IMG/VR virus record: IMGVR_UViG_3300037314_000028 | Location: 1-20,912 of that record | Source of the DNA: a virus | Length of the DNA stretch: 20,912 bases | Strand: one strand, 5' to 3' | In this document: positions 2,683 through 12,621 of the stretch, one piece after another | Layout: each line of letters starts with the position of its first letter | How positions within the stretch are numbered: position 1 is the first letter of the stretch | The notes under the pieces: generated by a model | Seen by the model: the letters and a program-made list of their open reading frames with translations, nothing else | Database searches by the model: none | Told to the model about the DNA's origin: nothing | Made by a program: the position numbers and the translations under genes

Positions 2683-4211
2683 TGGCGGCCTGGCTCGAAC
2701 GGGCGATCGCGGCCGTCAGTCCGGCGACGGCGTTGCAGCGTGAACAGTCGCGCCAGCAAATGTCGGCGATGCGCGAGGCGCGCAACCTCTACGAGGGCGC
2801 CACGCTCGGCCGCCGAGGCGCGTCGTTCAAGCGCAGTCAGAAAGACATCAACTCCGAGTTGCGCGGTGATTTGCACCGACTTCGGGAAGGCTCGCGCGAC
2901 CTGATCCGAAACAACGCCTACGCCGCCCGCGGCGTCCAGGCGATCACGCACAACATGATCGGCACCGGGATCATCCCGCAGTCGCGGGCCCGGACGCAGA
3001 CCGCGCAGGGCACGAGCGAGCGCCTGGCGCGCGAGCACCTGGACACAACGGCCATCGACGCGGCCGGCCGGCACGATCTTTACGGGCTGGAGGCGCTGGT
3101 CGCGCGGACGGTCGTTGAAAGCGGCGAGTGCATCATCCGCCGCCGGCGTCGCCGCATGAGTGACGGTCTGCCGCTGCCGTTCCAGCTGCAGGTTCTGGAG
3201 CCCGACTTCCTGGACAGCAACCGCGACGGGCCGGAGGAAGGCCAGAATTACAGTATCCAGGGCGTCCAGTTCGACGCGCTCGGCCGCGTCATGGGCTACT
3301 GGCTTTACGACCAGCACCCGGGCTCGACGAACGTGCGCTCGGCGCCCCACTTCCGCAGCAATTTCGTCCCGGCCGAGGATGTCGCGCACGTCTTTCGCAC
3401 CGACCGTGCCGGTCAGGTCCGCGGCGTGCCCTGGCTGGCGCCGGTGCTGCTACGCTTGCGCGATCTCGCCGACTACGAAGACGCGCAGCTGATCCGGCAA
3501 AAGATCGCCGCCTGCTTTGCCGCGTTCGTGACCGACGTCGAGGGCGCCACGCCGACCGCCGGCGACAAGGACGGCAACAACCCAAATCTGCAGGAAAGTC
3601 TCGAGCCCGGCATCATGGAATACCTGCCGCCGGGCAAGGACATCCGCTTCGCGTCACCGCCGCCGGCGGACGGGTACAAAGAACACCTGACCGCGCAGCT
3701 GCAGGCGATCGCCGCCGGCCTCGGCGTGAGCTACGAGGCGCTGACCGGCGATCTGAGCGAGGTCAACTTCTCCAGCGCCCGCATGGGTTGGCTGGAGTTC
3801 CAGCGCAACATCGAGGCCTGGCGCTGGCATTTTTTCGCGCCGCAGTTCTTGCGCCGGGTCGAGCGCTGGTTCTTTGAGGCGGCGAACATGCAGGGGACCC
3901 TGAGCGACCGCCGGGTCAGCTTCAGCTGGACGCCGCCGCGGCGCGAGATGATCGACCCGACGAAGGAGGTGCCGGCGAACCGCGATGCCGTACGGTCCGG
4001 CCAGCTTACCCTGTCCGAGCTGATCCGCCAGAACGGCCACGACCCGGACGAGCACTTTACCGAGTACGCCAGCGACATGGCGCGCATCGAGCAGCTCGGT
4101 CTGACGCTCGACAGCGATCCGCGGCGCGTCGACCGCAACGGCAACGCGCACACCCAGCTCCCGGCTGAAAGCCTGAACGGAGACGACAATGCCTCTGCCG
4201 AATCCGACTGA
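2682..4211 (+). CDS. Portal protein (lambda gpB family)
   Basis: This forms the ring at one capsid vertex through which DNA enters and leaves. At 509 residues it matches lambda gpB (533). Family signatures include REARNLYEGA near 29-38, DLHRLREGSRDLIRNNAYAARGVQAITHNMIGTGI near 63-98, a wing/stem region with LQVLEPDFLDSN near 170, VAHVFRTDRAGQVRGVPWLAPVL near 235-257, and the C-terminal crown region with GLGVSYEALTGDLSEVNFSSARMGWLEFQR near 347-376. The ATG overlaps the gpW-like stop by one base. The 3' end overlaps the protease-capsid gene by 23 nt. No disruption is seen. Some lambda-group portals are proteolytically trimmed at the N-terminus; nothing here shows whether this one is. Confidence 0.95.
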   Translation: MAAWLERAIAAVSPATALQREQSRQQMSAMREARNLYEGATLGRRGASFKRSQKDINSELRGDLHRLREGSRDLIRNNAYAARGVQAITHNMIGTGIIPQSRARTQTAQGTSERLAREHLDTTAIDAAGRHDLYGLEALVARTVVESGECIIRRRRRRMSDGLPLPFQLQVLEPDFLDSNRDGPEEGQNYSIQGVQFDALGRVMGYWLYDQHPGSTNVRSAPHFRSNFVPAEDVAHVFRTDRAGQVRGVPWLAPVLLRLRDLADYEDAQLIRQKIAACFAAFVTDVEGATPTAGDKDGNNPNLQESLEPGIMEYLPPGKDIRFASPPPADGYKEHLTAQLQAIAAGLGVSYEALTGDLSEVNFSSARMGWLEFQRNIEAWRWHFFAPQFLRRVERWFFEAANMQGTLSDRRVSFSWTPPRREMIDPTKEVPANRDAVRSGQLTLSELIRQNGHDPDEHFTEYASDMARIEQLGLTLDSDPRRVDRNGNAHTQLPAESLNGDDNASAESD

Positions 4212-6486
4212 AGGCGAGGGTCACGACGCCTTTATCCAGCGCTGCATGGCCGACGAGACTGTGCGGCAGGAATACGACGACGACAGCCAGCGCCGCGCGG
4301 TTTGCGAGGCGCAATGGGCGCGGATGTCCGGCGGTCAGCGCAACGTCGCCGCGCCGGCTAGTAACGCCGTCCGGCCGAACGGCGAGCTGGTGATGTACGG
4401 CATCATCGGCGACGAGATGGACGCGCTCGATAGCCAGACGCTGATGGCGCAGATCGACGCGATGGAGCTGGCCGAAGGTGAGCCGCTCGTCGTCCGGCTC
4501 AATTCCCCGGGTGGCTACATCGCCGACGGCCTGGCCGTCTACAACCTGCTTCGCGCGCGGTCCAACCCGGTCGAAGTCCACATCGACGGCGTCGCGGCGA
4601 GTATGGCGTCGGTGATCGCGATGGCAGGCGACCGGATCGTGATGCCCGACAACGCGGTGATGATGATCCACAACCCCTGGAACGCCGCGATGGGCGACGC
4701 GGCGACCATGCGCAAGGCCGCCGAGCAGCTCGACGTCTTCAAGGATGCGCTGATCGGCATTTACGCCGGCCGTACTGGCGTCGAGCGCGATCGCGTCAGC
4801 GAGATGATGGACGAGGAAACCTGGATGCGCGCTGACGAGGCCGTGTCGATGGGCTTCGCCGACGAGATAGTCGAGTCCGTCGCGGCGGCCGCGCTGCATC
4901 GGTTTGACCTGAACAAGCATTTCACCAGTCCACCGTCGGATCTCGGCGGTGAACAGGGCGGTTCCGCCGCCCGTCAAGTGGCGGAAGCGTCCGCCGAGCA
5001 AACCTCGAAGGAGGACACGATGACCAAGCAGACCCAGGGCTCGGCGGAGGCCACTCGCGCCGAGCGTCAGGCCGAGACGCAGACCGCGACGGCGGGCGGC
5101 GCCAGCGGCAAGACCAACACGGCTGAGCCCCAAAAGGATGCCGAGACCATCCGCAAGGAAGCGGTCGCGGCCGAACGCGAGCGGGCGAGCAAGATCCGCA
5201 ACCAGGTCGCCAAGGCGAGCCTGCCGACCGACTTCGCCGACAAGCTGATCGACGAGGGTGTGTCGACGGCGGACGCCAACGCGCGGATCGTCGACAAGCT
5301 CGCCGAGCAGGACGAGCAGACGCCGACCAACAACCACGTTCGCGTGATCCCGGGCGAGGATGAACGCACCAAGTGGATGAAGGGCGCTCAGAACGCGATC
5401 ATCGCCCGCGCCGGCAAGAGCAAAATGGTCGGCGACGCCACCGGCGAGAAGATCGAGCCGGGCGAGTTCCGCGGCATGACCATGCTGGATCTCGCGCGGG
5501 ACTGCCTCGATCGGGCGGGCGTCAAGCATCGCGGTCTCTCCAAGATGGAGCTGATGGGCCGCGCGCTGACCCTCCCGCCGGTAAATGCGGCGCCGTACCA
5601 GACCACCGGTGACTTTTCGACGCTGCTCGAGAACACCATGCACAAGGTGCTACAGGCGGCGTACGACAACACGCCGGATACCTGGTCGCGCTTCTGTGCC
5701 ACCGGCAGCGTGTCTGACTTCCGGCCGCACAACCGTTACCGGATGGGTATGTTCTCCCGGCTCGACAGCCTCACCGAGTCCGGCGAGTTCAAGAACAAGC
5801 CGATCAACGATGCTGAGAAGGAGGTGATGCAGGCCGGCACCTACGGCAACATCATCTCGCTGAGCCGCCAGGCGCTGATCTCCGACGACCTGTCGTCGTT
5901 CGATCGGCTGGCGACCATGCTCGGCCGTGCGGCACGGCTGTCCGTCGAGGTCGATGTCTATGCGCTGTTCGCCGAAAACGGCGGCAGCGGCCCGACGATG
6001 AACGACGGCAAAGCGTTCTTCCACTCCGATCACAACAACCTGGCCGGGACCACCGGCGCCCCGTCTGTCGACACGTTCGACAGCGTCCGAACCACGATGG
6101 CCAGCCAGCGCGATCCGTGGGACGGCGACTACCTCGACATCCGTCCGTCGATCTGGGTCGGCCCGCTCGGCCTTGGCGGTGAAGCTCGCGTGGTCAACGA
6201 CGCGCGGTACGACCCCAGCGACGCCGACACGCTTCAGAAGCCGAACCAGGTTCGCGGGCTGTTCCAGGACATCGTCGACACGCCGCGGCTGACGGGCACC
6301 CCTTGGTACGCCTTTGCCGACCCGGCCCAGGTGCCGGCCTTCGAGGTCGCGTTCCTGGAAGGCGAGACGCAGCCGTTCCTGGAGAGCGACGAAGGCTGGC
6401 GCGTCGATGGCGTCGAATGGAAGGTCCGCCACGACTATGGCGTCGCCGCTATCGACTACCGCGGCGCGGTGAAGAACACCGGCTAA
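4189..6486 (+). CDS. ClpP-like prohead protease fused to major capsid protein
   Basis: One 765-residue frame carries protease and shell protein. Residues 1-45 (PLPNPTEGEGHDAFIQRCM..., ...RRAVCEAQW) are a short module often found before phage protease domains. Residues about 60-235 are a ClpP/SppA-type serine protease with likely triad S138 (GVAASMAS), H161 (MMIHNPW) and D208 (MMDEETW); NSPGGYIADGLAVYN is the oxyanion region. Residues about 278-385 are charged and helical, like a scaffold segment. Residues about 400-765 resemble Mu gpT-type major capsid proteins (NRYRMGMFSRLDSL, FFHSDHNNLAG, RHDYGVAAIDYRGAVKNTG). The full frame begins after GGAGACGACA. A second, stronger ribosome site precedes an in-frame ATG at 5020. 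Such fusions are known in phages. Whether self-cleavage or internal initiation supplies the shell subunits is not shown. Confidence 0.92.
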   Translation: MPLPNPTEGEGHDAFIQRCMADETVRQEYDDDSQRRAVCEAQWARMSGGQRNVAAPASNAVRPNGELVMYGIIGDEMDALDSQTLMAQIDAMELAEGEPLVVRLNSPGGYIADGLAVYNLLRARSNPVEVHIDGVAASMASVIAMAGDRIVMPDNAVMMIHNPWNAAMGDAATMRKAAEQLDVFKDALIGIYAGRTGVERDRVSEMMDEETWMRADEAVSMGFADEIVESVAAAALHRFDLNKHFTSPPSDLGGEQGGSAARQVAEASAEQTSKEDTMTKQTQGSAEATRAERQAETQTATAGGASGKTNTAEPQKDAETIRKEAVAAERERASKIRNQVAKASLPTDFADKLIDEGVSTADANARIVDKLAEQDEQTPTNNHVRVIPGEDERTKWMKGAQNAIIARAGKSKMVGDATGEKIEPGEFRGMTMLDLARDCLDRAGVKHRGLSKMELMGRALTLPPVNAAPYQTTGDFSTLLENTMHKVLQAAYDNTPDTWSRFCATGSVSDFRPHNRYRMGMFSRLDSLTESGEFKNKPINDAEKEVMQAGTYGNIISLSRQALISDDLSSFDRLATMLGRAARLSVEVDVYALFAENGGSGPTMNDGKAFFHSDHNNLAGTTGAPSVDTFDSVRTTMASQRDPWDGDYLDIRPSIWVGPLGLGGEARVVNDARYDPSDADTLQKPNQVRGLFQDIVDTPRLTGTPWYAFADPAQVPAFEVAFLEGETQPFLESDEGWRVDGVEWKVRHDYGVAAIDYRGAVKNTG
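4956..4972 (+). other. 6-bp GC hairpin upstream of the internal capsid start
   Basis: GGGCGG at 4956-4961 pairs with CCGCCC at 4967-4972 across a 5-nt loop. It lies about 36 nt before the internal Shine-Dalgarno at 5008. It could slow ribosomes or shape access to the internal start, but stems of this size are expected by chance in such GC-rich DNA. Confidence 0.2.
5008..5022 (+). promoter_or_regulatory. Internal ribosome binding site and ATG inside the capsid fusion gene
   Basis: AAGGAGGA at 5008-5015 is a near-perfect Shine-Dalgarno followed after 4 nt by an in-frame ATG at 5020 (residue 278 of the fusion). It sits exactly between the protease domain and the scaffold/capsid part. Initiation here would give a 488-residue scaffold-capsid protein free of the protease. 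Lambda uses the same trick in gene C, where Nu3 starts inside the protease frame. Internal use is inferred. Confidence 0.65.
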
Positions 6487-8483: not shown

Positions 8484-9449
8484 ATGGCCCCTCGCGCCCG
8501 CGGGATCACGTCCGAGCTCTACGGAGCCTTTGAGAGCACCTTCGCCCAGCCCGTCAGCAGCGGCAGCTATTGGCAACTGCCGTTCTACTCCGACAGCCTC
8601 GGCGAGGCGCAGGGGCTGAGCGAAGACCCCGAACTCGGCTTCGGCCGCGAGCCGCAGCAGCCGGTTCGCGACGCGCGCAATGTGGACGGCGACATCGTCG
8701 CCCCCGGTCGCCTGGCGCCGCTCGGCGTCTGGCTCAAGGCGCTGCTGGGCGCGCCGACGACGACCGGCTCGGGGCCCGACTACACTCACACCTTCACCAG
8801 CGGCGCCGAGACGCTGCCGAGCCTGACGCTGGAGAAGAAGCTAAAGGACGGCGCGTTCCTGCAGTACCCCGGCATCATGGCGAACCAGCTCACCGTGTCG
8901 CTGGAGCGCGGCGGCAACCCGCGCTTCACCTTCGGCCTGCTCGGCACGAAGGAAAACAAGCTCACCAGCTCCAGCGCCGGCACGCCGACGAAGCTGACCT
9001 CGCCGAAGTTCCAGAACTTCCAGGGCACCCTCCAGGCCGACCGGGGCAGCGGGTTCCAGCCGTTCGCGCTGGTGACCAGCTTCGACCTGACCTGGAACAA
9101 CGGGCTCGAGCAGATCCCGGAAGTCGGTGATGGCGGGATCATCCAGAACATCGACCCCGGCGCGCCCTCGCTGTCCGGCAGCTTCAACGTCCGCTTCACC
9201 GACTTCACGAACTACGACGCCGCGGCGAACAACGACGCGCTCGCGATCGAGCTCAAGTGGCAGATCGCGGCCAACCGATATCTGACGCTGACGATGCACC
9301 GCGTGCGGCTGCCGAAGCCCAAGCACCAAATCTCCGGGCCGGGCGGTATCGAGGTCAGCTACGACTGGCGCGGCGAGTACGACAGCGGCCAGGACGCTTC
9401 GCTGACGGCCGAGCTGTCGAACGATCAGTCCGACTACACGAACCCGTAA
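8484..9449 (+). CDS. Major tail tube protein
   Basis: A 321-residue protein in the lambda V position. The start MAPRARGITSELYGAFESTFAQPVSSGSYWQLPFYSDSLG, then APGRLAPLGVWLKALLGAPTTTG and YTHTFTSGAETLPSLTLEKKL, is the familiar pattern of long tail tube proteins of the Phage_tube_2 type. The middle is beta-rich (FQNFQGTLQADRGSGFQPFALVTSFDLTWNNGLE) and the end, ALAIELKWQIAANRYLTLTMHRVRLPKPKHQISGPGGIEVSYDWRGEYD, is also typical. Subunits stack as hexameric rings around the tape measure to form the tail shaft. An AGGAGA ribosome site precedes the ATG. It is followed nine bases later by the chaperone gene that presumably serves this protein. Confidence 0.88.
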   Translation: MAPRARGITSELYGAFESTFAQPVSSGSYWQLPFYSDSLGEAQGLSEDPELGFGREPQQPVRDARNVDGDIVAPGRLAPLGVWLKALLGAPTTTGSGPDYTHTFTSGAETLPSLTLEKKLKDGAFLQYPGIMANQLTVSLERGGNPRFTFGLLGTKENKLTSSSAGTPTKLTSPKFQNFQGTLQADRGSGFQPFALVTSFDLTWNNGLEQIPEVGDGGIIQNIDPGAPSLSGSFNVRFTDFTNYDAAANNDALAIELKWQIAANRYLTLTMHRVRLPKPKHQISGPGGIEVSYDWRGEYDSGQDASLTAELSNDQSDYTNP

Positions 9450-9458
9450 GGACCGGCC

Positions 9459-10046
9459 ATGACGGACAAGACGGACGACAAGGCCGAGGTCGCGATCGAT
9501 CTCTCCGAGGAGGTTGGCACCGAGCCGTTCTGGCTGGAACTGCGGCCGGGCGTGCAGCTGCAGGTCATGCCGGCCGAGGGCTGGGTCTGGTCGGCGGCCG
9601 CCGCATACGCCAAGCGCCGCGTGGGCGAGATCATGCAGGCGCATGATGACGTTGAGGAGACGGGCGCGGAAATCTTCTCCAAGATCGACCTGCACGATGT
9701 CGACGCCCTCGAGGGCTACAGCCGGCGGCTCTACGCCGAAGGCCTGGCGCGGCAGGTGGTGGTCGACTGGACCGGCGTCGGCGAGGACGGCGAGAAGGCG
9801 GCGGTGACCAAAGATCGGGTCACGCGCCTGATGGGGATCGGCCAGCACGCCGAGACGTTCCTCACGCGCTACACCGCCCGCATGGACCGGGTCTCGGCCG
9901 AGGGAAACGGCTCCGGGGCCTCGCCGTCTGGCACTTCGGCGACGGCCCCGACTACTGCGCAAAGTGCTGGGAACAAGACCTCCCGTGCGCGCACGGGCGG
10001 CAAGGGCTCGACGGGCAAAGGTGCCCGTACGTCGAAAACCGGCTGA
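9459..10046 (+). CDS. Tail assembly chaperone, unshifted form (gpG-like)
   Basis: The zero-frame product has 195 residues. The folded part is residues 1 to about 150: an acidic start (DKTDDKAEVAIDLSEEVG), then EPFWLELRPGVQLQVMPAEGWVWSAAAAYAKRRVGEIM, and the helical DVDALEGYSRRLYAEGLARQVVVDWTGVG. In lambda, gpG coats the tape measure and recruits tube subunits. From residue 151 the zero frame encodes only Ser/Thr/Gly/Lys low complexity, as expected of a stretch whose real constraint is in another frame. AAGGA precedes the ATG. A slippery site at 9902-9908 sends some ribosomes into the -1 frame (next entry). Confidence 0.85.
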   Translation: MTDKTDDKAEVAIDLSEEVGTEPFWLELRPGVQLQVMPAEGWVWSAAAAYAKRRVGEIMQAHDDVEETGAEIFSKIDLHDVDALEGYSRRLYAEGLARQVVVDWTGVGEDGEKAAVTKDRVTRLMGIGQHAETFLTRYTARMDRVSAEGNGSGASPSGTSATAPTTAQSAGNKTSRARTGGKGSTGKGARTSKTG

Positions 10047-10291
10047 CCAGCGTCCAGGGATACCAGGTCTGGGACCTGCTGACGGCCTGCGCCGGCCAGC
10101 TGCGGACCGCGGGCATGGACGGCGCGGTGGTCGGTCTCGACCAGCCGGCAGTCCTGCAGGCGGCCGACGCTTTCGGCTACGACCGACGCTGGGTCATGCG
10201 GCTGCTGCCGTGGGCCGAGCGCGGCGTCGTGGAGGCGATCGCCGAGCAGCGCTGGCGGAAGAAAGATCATGACGAGGGCGGGGAGAAGTGA
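9459..10291 (+). CDS. Tail assembly chaperone, -1 frameshifted form (gpG-T-like, joined at 9908)
   Basis: Reading 9459-9908, then stepping back one base and continuing 9908-10291, gives a 277-residue protein. The added 127 residues begin RLRGLAVWHFGDGPDYC and include C-x2-C-x6-C-x11-C at C167, C170, C177 and C189, then CPYVENRLTSVQGYQVWDLLTACAGQLR and a helical end (AADAFGYDRRWVMRLLPWAERGVVEAIAEQ). The -1 frame has no ATG of its own before this conserved block, so fusion by frameshift is the natural expression route. In lambda the T part of gpG-T binds the tail tube protein while G holds the tape measure; the same division is inferred here. The shifted frame ends 8 bp before the end of the minus-strand lipoprotein gene. 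Confidence 0.85.
9902..9950 (+). promoter_or_regulatory. Programmed -1 frameshift signal (GGGAAAC plus stem)
   Basis: GGGAAAC at 9902-9908 is an XXXYYYZ heptamer in the correct phase: zero-frame codons are GGA (9903) and AAC (9906). After a 5-nt spacer, CGGGGCC (9914-9920) pairs with GGCCCCG (9944-9950), and TCGCCG (9921-9926) pairs with CGGCGA (9937-9942). Together they make 13 base pairs with one bulged C (9943) and a 10-nt loop. Lambda uses GGGAAAG at the equivalent place. Confidence 0.88.
9982..9997. other. 16-bp perfect palindrome
   Basis: CCCGTGCGCGCACGGG is identical to its reverse complement. It lies in the shifted chaperone domain, 31 nt after the frameshift stem, where it encodes residues around C177 in the -1 frame. 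It could fold as a second hairpin in the message or be a protein-binding dyad. No function can be assigned. Confidence 0.3.
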
Positions 10292-10299
10292 GCCGGACG

Positions 10300-10539
10300 T
10301 CATTGCCGCTGCCGTGTATAGCCACGCGCTTGAAGACACGATTTGATCAGCTCTGCTTCGCGAAAGCCGGCCGCGAGTCCGCTACTGACATCAACCGTCG
10401 CCTTTTGCGCTTCGTATTCGCACTCTTTCTTGTCGCGCTCAAATTGTGCGTGTGTGGCGCCTGGTTTAGTCCACACGACATTCTGCGCGCAGGCGGAAAG
10501 AAAGATCAGAACACTGGCGAGCATAGCCATCCGAAACAT
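10300..10539 (-). CDS. Small predicted outer-membrane-type lipoprotein (moron candidate)
   Basis: The only convincing minus-strand gene encodes 79 residues. A short hydrophobic signal (MFRMAMLASVLIFLSAC) ends in a lipobox LSAC with C17 as the lipidated residue; the mature part starts CAQNVVWTKPGATHAQFERDKKECEYEAQKA. The 'VW-x-KPG-x(5)-F-x-x-D-x-x-x-C' pattern is one I recognise from small lipoproteins of Gram-negative bacteria with no known function; C39 and C68 could form a disulfide. GGAGTG lies 7 nt before its ATG. The gene runs against the operon between chaperone and tape measure, and the region is less GC-rich (131 of 240 at 10321-10560). Phage lipoproteins of this kind can act in superinfection exclusion or alter the lysogen surface, but no activity can be read here. 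I see no terminator after it. Confidence 0.72.
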   Translation of the reverse strand: MFRMAMLASVLIFLSACAQNVVWTKPGATHAQFERDKKECEYEAQKATVDVSSGLAAGFREAELIKSCLQARGYTRQRQ

Positions 10540-10566: not shown

Positions 10567-12621
10567 ATGCCTCGAAGTTCGTTTATCATCGATCTACGCT
10601 TTGACGGCGGACGTCAAGCCGAAGAGACGTTTGAGCGCATCGGTCGGACCGGCGACCGCTCGATGAAGCAGGTCTCGCAGGCCAGTCAGCCCGCCCGTCG
10701 CGGCCTGCTCGCCGTCGACGATGCCAGCCGCGCGGTGCAAGGCAGTGTGGACGAAATGGCGGAGCGGTTGGGGCCGGCCGGTGCAGCCCTCCGCGCGCTC
10801 GGTCCGGCCGGCACGGCCGCTGCGGCTGCGATCGCCACCACGACGGCAGGCCTGGCCGCGTTAACCCAGCGGGCACCGGAGGCGAACCGGCGTATTGCGG
10901 AGCTAGGCGAGCAGGCGGACCAGCTCGGCGTAAGTGTCCAGGCGCTCCAGGAGCTGCGCTTCGCGGCCAGCCAGGTCGGCGTCGAAGAAAGTCGCCTCGA
11001 AGACGGGCTGCAGGAGCTGAACAGCCGGCTAGGCGAGCTGCGAAACGAAGCCGGCCCGCTGGCGAACACCTTGGAGGAGATGGACGCACGCGGGCTGCAA
11101 ACGGCGCTGCGTGGCGCCGAAGATACCGAAGAGGCGTTCCAAATACTGATCGACGCCCTGCGCGACGGCGACAACACCTTCGACAACGCCGCGCTGGCAG
11201 CCGCGGGCTTTGGCGAAGAGGCCGGCCGGGCGATCCAGCGCCTGGCAAATCGGGACCTACCGGCTCTGCGCCAGGAGTTCCGCGACACGGGCGCGGCGTT
11301 TGACGAGGATATGGTCGACGGCGCCCAAGAGGCGCGGCGGGAGATCGAAAGTCTGAACACGCAGATCCAGAACAACGCCGACGCGATCAGTCAGAATCTC
11401 CTACCGGTCACGCGCGCCTGGAAGGAAGAGGTCGCCGAGCTGACCGGCAACCTGCGGGATCTGACCGAAAGCCCCAGCTCCAAGACGTTCACGCAGTTTC
11501 TTGGCGACGCACTGAACATTCCGGAGCTGAACCCGTTCCAATTTCCCGCGATGAACCAGGGCGGCGGTTCTGGCGACGGCGACGGCGACGGCGACGGCGG
11601 AACCGAGGTTGGCGGCATCCAGCCCGGCCTACCGCCCGGGCTGTTTCAGAGCCCCGATACCATCGCCGGGATCACTACCCCTGGCGTCCCCACGCCCGGC
11701 ACGCGGCCGGAAACCCCCGCGGACTTCCGCGGCGGCGCTGGCGGCGGATCGTCCGAACCTCTCTCGTTTGCCGGGATCAACTTCGGCGATCGCTTCACGA
11801 TGGACGATGCGATTGCCGAGACGATCCGGCTCAACCAGGACCTGGGCGAGCAGAGCCGGGCGGCAGAGCAGGATATCCAACAACTCGCCGACACGATCCG
11901 CAGCGAGGCGGCCGGCGCGACCGGGGAGTACGCCAAGCAGCTGACCGACCTCAACCGCGCCTATGAGGTCGGCGCGATCAACCAGGACACCTACCGCCAG
12001 CGCGCCGACCAGCTGGCCGAGCAGTTCACCGAGCAGGCCAACGCGGCGGAAGGCCTCGGTCGCGCGGCGGACCAACTGGGTTTCACGTTCTCTTCGGCCT
12101 TCGAGGACGCGATCATCAACGGCGAGCGGCTGTCCACGGTGCTGCAGGGACTCGCCCAGGACATCGCCCGGATCGCGCTGCGCAAGGCGGTCACCGAGCC
12201 GGCAGGCAACTTCATCGCCGACGCCATCAGCGGCGGCTTTTCTCTGTTCAGCGGCGGCACCAGCACCGGCGGCGCGGCCGTGCCGTCGTCTCAGGGCGGC
12301 CTGGGGCAGCCGCTGCCGACGTTCGCTCAAGGCGGGATCGCCAACCGGCCGTCGATCTTCGGCGAGGCGGGCCCCGAGGCGGCGGTGCCGTTGCCGAACG
12401 GTCGGGAGATCCCGGTCAGGTTTCAGGGCGGCGGCACGACCTACGCGCCGGTGGTCAACGTCACCGTCCAGGGCGCGGGCGGCAGCGACGAAGAGCGCCG
12501 GCGCACGGGCGAGATCGTGGGCCGCGAAGTCGAACGGGCGATCAACCGGAAGGTCGATGCGCGCATCCGCCAGGCGACCCGGCCGGGCGGCCAGCTGAAC
12601 CGCAGCGCGGACCCGATCTAG
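10567..12621 (+). CDS. Tail tape measure protein (gpH-like)
   Basis: A 684-residue, largely helical protein that sets tail length and is ejected with the DNA. The N-terminus (SSFIIDLRFDGGRQAEETFERIGRTGDRSMKQVSQASQ) and the Ala-rich hydrophobic segment at about 75-100 are typical. AELGEQADQLGVSVQALQELRFAASQVGV near 110-145 is a common tape measure motif. Residues about 330-385 are a Gly/Asp/Pro linker with a (GD)n tract. The end has QGGIANRPSIFGEAGPEAAVPLPNGREIPV, a hallmark of this family. At about 0.15 nm per residue it predicts a tail near 100 nm. The ATG at 10567 has no ribosome site but the homologous start begins there. It is shorter than lambda gpH (853). Confidence 0.92.
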   Translation: MPRSSFIIDLRFDGGRQAEETFERIGRTGDRSMKQVSQASQPARRGLLAVDDASRAVQGSVDEMAERLGPAGAALRALGPAGTAAAAAIATTTAGLAALTQRAPEANRRIAELGEQADQLGVSVQALQELRFAASQVGVEESRLEDGLQELNSRLGELRNEAGPLANTLEEMDARGLQTALRGAEDTEEAFQILIDALRDGDNTFDNAALAAAGFGEEAGRAIQRLANRDLPALRQEFRDTGAAFDEDMVDGAQEARREIESLNTQIQNNADAISQNLLPVTRAWKEEVAELTGNLRDLTESPSSKTFTQFLGDALNIPELNPFQFPAMNQGGGSGDGDGDGDGGTEVGGIQPGLPPGLFQSPDTIAGITTPGVPTPGTRPETPADFRGGAGGGSSEPLSFAGINFGDRFTMDDAIAETIRLNQDLGEQSRAAEQDIQQLADTIRSEAAGATGEYAKQLTDLNRAYEVGAINQDTYRQRADQLAEQFTEQANAAEGLGRAADQLGFTFSSAFEDAIINGERLSTVLQGLAQDIARIALRKAVTEPAGNFIADAISGGFSLFSGGTSTGGAAVPSSQGGLGQPLPTFAQGGIANRPSIFGEAGPEAAVPLPNGREIPVRFQGGGTTYAPVVNVTVQGAGGSDEERRRTGEIVGREVERAINRKVDARIRQATRPGGQLNRSADPI
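11572..11595 (+). repeat. Four tandem GGCGAC hexamers in the tape measure gene
   Basis: GGCGAC is repeated exactly four times at 11572-11595, coding Gly-Asp pairs in a flexible linker. Copy changes would add or remove two residues without breaking the frame. Exact repetition at DNA level suggests recent slippage. Confidence 0.75.

What the first reader, a model, noticed from the sequence alone, without database searches (positions are those of the whole stretch)
9902..9950. Complete -1 frameshift signal in a non-lambda tail chaperone
GGGAAAC sits in exact X-XXY-YYZ phase, a 5-nt spacer follows, and then a 13-bp stem with one bulged C. The -1 frame continues open for 127 codons with a conserved-looking domain while the zero frame decays to low complexity. 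All elements of a programmed frameshift are visible. The stem is stronger and closer than I would expect by chance.
Basis: partly seen in the sequence, partly recalled or inferred. Interest (0 to 1): 0.72.

Follow-up and report, generated by a model that had tools for sequence, protein, structure and literature searches.

The report
Conserved frameshift in phage tail chaperone
The ribosome almost certainly slips back one base here to make a short and a long version of a phage tail-building helper protein; the signal is real and strongly conserved in relatives, but it is an ordinary example of a well-known phage trick.

Summary
GGGAAAC at 9902-9908 is in phase with the 195-codon ORF 9459-10046. 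A 5-nt spacer and a 13-bp stem with one bulged C follow, ending at 9950. The -1 frame stays open for 127 codons and has no ATG/GTG/TTG from the stop at 9653 to 10115, so the second domain has no usual start of its own. The ORF matches tail assembly chaperones (PHROG 313) and lies between tail-tube and tape-measure genes.

In 141 distinct relatives the homologous seven bases are AAAAAAC (83) or GGGAAAC (51). In 50 non-redundant sequences the hairpin is always more stable than the mean of synonymous recodings (mean z -2.4). In 60 the zero frame stops two codons past the heptamer. Rhodobacter phages RcBaka and RcKemmy are already annotated with the joined chaperone.

This is a G/GT programmed -1 frameshift: a new member of a known kind. 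Small new points: the family uses X_XXA_AAC, never AAG; the true -1 domain has an invariant WH.G.G motif and four near-invariant cysteines; Pfam DUF7697 covers only its C-terminal part; its predicted fold resembles other phages' tape-measure chaperones. Protein production and efficiency are untested.

The parts
9459..10046 (+). Zero-frame ORF (G product), 195 aa tail assembly chaperone; residues 151-195 after the heptamer are low complexity
   Evidence: ORF; PHROG 313 'Tail assembly chaperone' E 1.5e-9, 34 of 39 relatives also hit it
9902..9908 (+). Slippery heptamer G_GGA_AAC
   Evidence: Phase read directly; AAAAAAC or GGGAAAC at the homologous place in 134 of 141 distinct relatives
9909..9913 (+). 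5-nt spacer GGCTC
9914..9926 (+). 5' arm of the stimulatory hairpin (13 nt)
   Evidence: MFE -27.8 kcal/mol, z -3.98; synonymous control; pair counts
9937..9950 (+). 3' arm of the hairpin, C9943 bulged
9908..10291 (+). -1 frame (T domain), 127 codons plus stop; R1, WHFG.G at 8-13, cysteines at 17, 20, 27, 39; residues 70-115 = DUF7697
   Evidence: AlphaFold2 mean pLDDT 95.7
8484..9449 (+). Tail tube protein gene, upstream neighbour
   Evidence: Pfam Phage_tube_2 1.7e-48
10567..12621 (+). Tape measure protein gene, downstream neighbour
   Evidence: several PHROG tape-measure families, best 1.5e-19

Best explanation
[quoted passage not shown] Most ribosomes read through to 10046 and make the 195-aa G product. 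A minority, held up by the hairpin at 9914-9950 while GGA and AAC sit in the P and A sites, slip back one base (to GGG and AAA) and continue at CGG, making a 277-aa GT product (...EGN-RLRG...). By analogy with lambda, G coats the tape measure protein and T recruits tail tube subunits. Shown here: the sequence elements, their phase, their conservation and the absence of another usual start for T. Inferred: that shifting happens, its efficiency, and the roles of G and T.
For: Heptamer in exact phase and rare (4 of 6103 in-phase sites). At the homologous base of 141 distinct relatives: AAAAAAC 83, GGGAAAC 51, AAAAAAA 2, GGGGGAA 1; GGGGGAA is itself a recurrent tail-chaperone shift motif in PRFect's phage data (PMC10885494). 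X swaps between GGG and AAA as a block, as tandem slippage needs. In 60 of 141 the zero frame ends at the third codon counted from XXY (XXY, AAC, one more, stop counted), so T can be reached only by shifting. Downstream of the site identity to the window is 63% in the -1 frame against 41% in frame 0. Hairpin: all 50 non-redundant sequences have z below 0 against synonymous recodings, mean -2.4, 32 with p<=0.05; some covariation, e.g. pair 7-41 in six pair types. G matches PHROG 313; tube upstream, tape measure downstream. T folds confidently (pLDDT 95.7) and its best named viral structural matches are 'tape measure chaperone' proteins (Foldseek prob 0.95-1.00). RcBaka and RcKemmy are annotated as joined CDS at the same site.
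Against: No protein or reporter data. X_XXA_AAC is much less shifty than A_AAA_AAG in E. coli (PMC5009743), so efficiency may be low. Column-wise covariation is modest because the bulge moves between relatives; the RNAalifold consensus is weak, -2.57 kcal/mol. Foldseek E-values for T are above 0.01. The 50 sequences are related, so the Wilcoxon p overstates independence.
Confidence: 0.95

Rival explanations
1. T is a separate gene translated from its own internal start, and the overlap is incidental.
For: An ATG exists at 10115 (codon 70 of T), and Pfam DUF7697 / PHROG 11212 begin there. Nostoc phage Nsp-JY21 and Synechococcus phage Sc-Yong805-1 are annotated with T as a separate CDS starting at an internal ATG.
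Against: That start would drop the most conserved part of the domain (R1, WHFG, the cysteines). No start of the three usual kinds lies between the stop at 9653 and 10115. The first T-frame start sits at scattered codons in relatives (2 to 99; 47 of 50 beyond codon 20), so no start is conserved. An independent gene would not explain the phased heptamer.
Confidence: 0.02
2. Transcriptional slippage on the A run, rather than ribosomal slippage, gives the frame change.
For: Most relatives carry AAAAAAC, and the Nostoc phage has a run of eight A; such runs can make RNA polymerase slip.
Against: This window and 50 other distinct relatives have GGGAAAC, with no run longer than three. The hairpin is kept in both kinds, which fits ribosomal shifting.
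Confidence: 0.02
3. The zero-frame/-1 break is a sequencing error or a decayed gene, and G and T are really one frame.
For: A one-base error would also give two overlapping frames.
Against: The same -1 phase recurs in 141 distinct relatives from isolate genomes, prophages and metagenomes, and an independently named contig reads identically over 3094 bases covering the site.
Confidence: 0.005

Closest known systems
Phage lambda G/GT tail assembly chaperone frameshift (reviewed in PMC5009743)
   Same: Gene position before the tape measure; short G and -1 extended GT from one start; XXXYYYZ site near the end of G
   Different: Heptamer ends in AAC here, in AAG in lambda (lambda heptamer from memory); no sequence family shared in these searches; strong hairpin 5 nt downstream
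Rhodobacter capsulatus phages RcBaka, RcKemmy and the RcC group (MW677509, MW677517; PMC8601537)
   Same: Homologous G and T, same GGGAAAC at the same codon, same hairpin place, joined CDS annotated as tail assembly chaperone
   Different: T only about 34% identical to the window's; shorter zero-frame tail
Caulobacter phages phiCbK (AAAAAAC) and Colossus (GGGAAAC), PMC3556154; Acinetobacter phage Loki (AAAAAAC), PMC5313236; Burkholderia phage KL1 (GGGAAAC), PMC3483164
   Same: Same heptamers predicted for tail/tape-measure chaperone frameshifts; Loki's chaperone is also a weak fold match of T
   Different: Not matched by the sequence search of T; hairpins not compared here
Pfam PF24752 DUF7697 / PHROG 11212
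   Same: Residues 70-115 of T match, 45.8 bits against a cut-off of 27
   Different: The models (52 and 55 positions) hold only the C-terminal part; probably built on gene calls that miss the frameshift (inference)

Membership tests
G/GT tail assembly chaperone with programmed -1 frameshift | Gene lies between tail tube and tape measure genes | tested here: met
   Phage_tube_2 at 8484-9449, tape measure at 10567-12621
G/GT tail assembly chaperone with programmed -1 frameshift | G product belongs to a tail assembly chaperone family | tested here: met
   PHROG 313 E 1.5e-9; 34 of 39 relatives
G/GT tail assembly chaperone with programmed -1 frameshift | XXXYYYZ heptamer in phase near the 3' end of G | tested here: met
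G/GT tail assembly chaperone with programmed -1 frameshift | T in the -1 frame, overlapping G, without its own start | tested here: met
   relatives
G/GT tail assembly chaperone with programmed -1 frameshift | Downstream stimulatory RNA structure (common, not universal) | tested here: met
G/GT tail assembly chaperone with programmed -1 frameshift | T domain shares the fold of known -1 extensions | tested here: inconclusive
   Foldseek prob 0.95-1.00 to tape measure chaperones of phages F20, Solomon, Scapp, W011D, but E 0.015-0.2 and TM about 0.5; nothing in PDB
G/GT tail assembly chaperone with programmed -1 frameshift | Both G and GT are made, GT in the minority | not testable with these tools
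   needs mass spectrometry or a reporter
Pfam DUF7697 (PF24752) | Score above the curated cut-off | tested here: met
   45.8 bits, cut-off 27

The most novel reading that the evidence does not exclude
A deeply conserved frameshift cassette in phages and prophages of (mostly alpha- and beta-) proteobacteria that uses only A-site AAC (rarely AAA) plus a hairpin, never the AAG favoured in E. coli. Either Arg1 of T forbids Z = G, or AAC is kept to hold shifting low while the hairpin sets the rate. Its -1 domain is a cysteine-rich fold (W-H-F-G-x-G, C-x2-C, C, C, possibly metal-binding) that public families hold only in truncated form because gene callers miss the shift.
Probability: 0.45. Interest if true: 0.35.

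Novelty: new member of a known kind. Interest (0 to 1): 0.22.

Why it matters
It adds a firmly supported, widespread case to the tail-chaperone frameshifts and gives a set of well over a hundred natural variants of one shift cassette, useful for testing how X_XXA_AAC sites and hairpins set frameshift rate in bacteria other than E. coli. It also shows that a Pfam family of unknown function (DUF7697) is very probably the C-terminal piece of a frameshift-made tail chaperone domain, which would correct annotation in many phages and prophages.

Tried and rejected
Single-protein scan of genome contigs found no relative; the profile scan did. RNAalifold on the 50-sequence alignment gave a weak 4-pair consensus because the bulge moves and one member (L168, heptamer ACAAAAC) has neither a good heptamer nor a stem; per-sequence folding against synonymous recodings was used instead. 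Sequence search of PDB with T and G profiles gave nothing credible, nor did Foldseek against PDB. Deviating heptamers were looked at: L089, L091 and L152 are Defluviicoccus MAG loci with masked bases at the site or a broken zero frame (likely sequence problems), L005 and L154 have AAAAAAA, which still gives Arg (AGG/AGA). Considered and rejected: internal start for T, transcriptional slippage, sequencing error (see rivals). No paper names DUF7697.

Full report
What is there. The 195-codon ORF 9459-10046 matches PHROG 313, 'Tail assembly chaperone', at E 1.5e-9. It lies between a tail tube gene (8484-9449, Pfam Phage_tube_2) and a tape measure gene (10567-12621), in a head-and-tail gene block. 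GGGAAAC at 9902-9908 spans codons 148-150 in the phase G_GGA_AAC. It is followed by GGCTC, a 13-bp stem with C9943 bulged and a 10-nt loop (9914-9950; -27.8 kcal/mol, z -3.98). From C9908 the -1 frame runs 127 codons to 10291.

More than chance. In 15 ORFs of the window only 4 of 6103 in-phase positions carry XXXYYYZ with Y = A or T. The stem beats 0 of 200 dinucleotide shuffles and, more to the point, 0 of 300 synonymous recodings that keep the -1 protein match it (z -3.9). The T frame has no ATG, GTG or TTG from its upstream stop (9653) to 10115, by which point the most conserved third of T has passed.

Relatives. Searches with T and then with a five-sequence profile brought 160 loci from viral contigs and species genomes, plus phage records. 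Anchoring each on its WHFG motif gave 141 distinct junctions. The homologous seven bases are AAAAAAC in 83, GGGAAAC in 51, AAAAAAA in 2, GGGGGAA in 1; the other four include three loci of one Defluviicoccus MAG with masked or broken sequence, and L168 (ACAAAAC). In 60 of 141, the zero frame ends two codons past the heptamer, so a shift is the only way into T. Over the first 20 codons downstream, identity to the window averages 63% in the -1 frame, 41% in frame 0 and 49% in the +1 frame. The first T-frame start codon falls anywhere from codon 2 to 99 in 50 non-redundant members, 47 of them beyond codon 20: there is no conserved start.

Hairpin. In 50 sequences below 86% identity to each other, the first 48 nt after the heptamer always fold better than the mean of recodings that keep the T protein and use local codon frequencies (mean z -2.4, median -2.4, 32 of 50 with p <= 0.05). 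The register of the stem is shared but the bulge moves or vanishes, so column-wise counts are blurred: 71-75% of cells pair against 31-56% for slid versions, and 8-9 pairs show changes on both sides. The best covarying pair is column 7 with 41 (GC, CG, AU, UA, GU, UG). RNAalifold alone is weak. The sequences share ancestry, so the significance across sequences is overstated; the direction is not in doubt.

What the -1 domain is. Across 50 members R1, W8, H9, G11, G13, C17, C20 and C39 are invariant and C27 nearly so. Pfam DUF7697 covers only residues 70-115, starting at the internal Met, which suggests the public family was built on gene calls that miss the shift (inference). The domain is predicted with high confidence (pLDDT 95.7). 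Among viral models the best named matches are 'tape measure chaperone' of phages F20, Solomon, W011D and Scapp (Foldseek probability 0.95-1.00, E 0.015-0.2) and the tail assembly chaperone of Acinetobacter phage Loki (probability 0.63), whose AAAAAAC shift was predicted in PMC5313236. No solved structure matches. I take this as moderate evidence that T is the same kind of extension as in other tail chaperones.

How it works. Most ribosomes finish G; a fraction, paused by the hairpin with GGA in the P site and AAC in the A site, slip to GGG and AAA and go on in the T frame. In lambda, G binds the tape measure and T recruits the tube protein, at about 30:1 (PMC5009743). The elements and their conservation are shown here; slippage, its rate and the roles of G and T are inferred.

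What is known and what is new. Tail-chaperone frameshifts are textbook; the same two heptamers were predicted in phiCbK and Colossus (PMC3556154), KL1 (PMC3483164) and haloarchaeal viruses HCTV-1 and -2 (PMC5009743). RcBaka and RcKemmy records already carry the joined CDS for this very family, and PMC8601537 treats the frameshift as usual in these phages. What seems unreported in what I could search is the exclusive use of A-site AAC (or AAA) across the family although AAG is far shiftier in E. coli. Arg1 is invariant and its codon starts with the last base of the heptamer, so Z = G is forbidden by the protein alone (AAAAAAA members use AGG or AGA); whether low shiftiness is also selected is open.

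Verdict. Observation confirmed, interpretation supported, a new member of a known kind, low to modest interest.

Noticed in passing
10300-10539 (minus strand): A 79-aa predicted lipoprotein (MFRMAMLASVLIFLSACAQ...) lies antisense between T and the tape measure gene in a stretch of 55% GC against 69-71% on both sides; no Pfam or PHROG match. In most relatives the tape measure follows T after about 3 nt. Looks like a 'moron' gene, perhaps for superinfection exclusion (inference).
   Followed up: partly
L002 281-676 (minus strand): In the nearest diverged relative (84% DNA identity in T) the same slot holds an unrelated antisense gene, a 131-aa membrane protein with a CPHC...CPQC ribbon: the gap between T and the tape measure looks like an insertion slot for antisense morons.
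   Followed up: partly
4189-6486: A ClpP-type head maturation protease and the major capsid protein are fused in one 765-aa ORF (CLP_protease 3.4e-33, Phage_capsid_4 1.7e-48); PHROG 4523 names the same fusion, so it is known.
   Followed up: no
L005 2657-3354, L006 2657-3354: Nostoc phage Nsp-JY21 and Synechococcus phage Sc-Yong805-1 read identically here and are annotated with T as a separate short gene from an internal ATG, which cuts off the WHFG and cysteine part: probably misannotated. Their T relatives are mostly in alphaproteobacteria, so the stated cyanobacterial hosts may deserve a check.
   Followed up: no
L013 2495-2501: One relative has GGGGGAA in place of GGGAAAC, with the hairpin kept; the same motif recurs in over a thousand annotated actinobacteriophage chaperones (PMC10885494), suggesting G:U-assisted slippage.
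   Followed up: no
L168 2495-2548: In Methylobacterium goesingense both the heptamer (ACAAAAC) and the hairpin (z -0.07) are degraded together, as expected of a decaying prophage or a member that no longer shifts.
   Followed up: no
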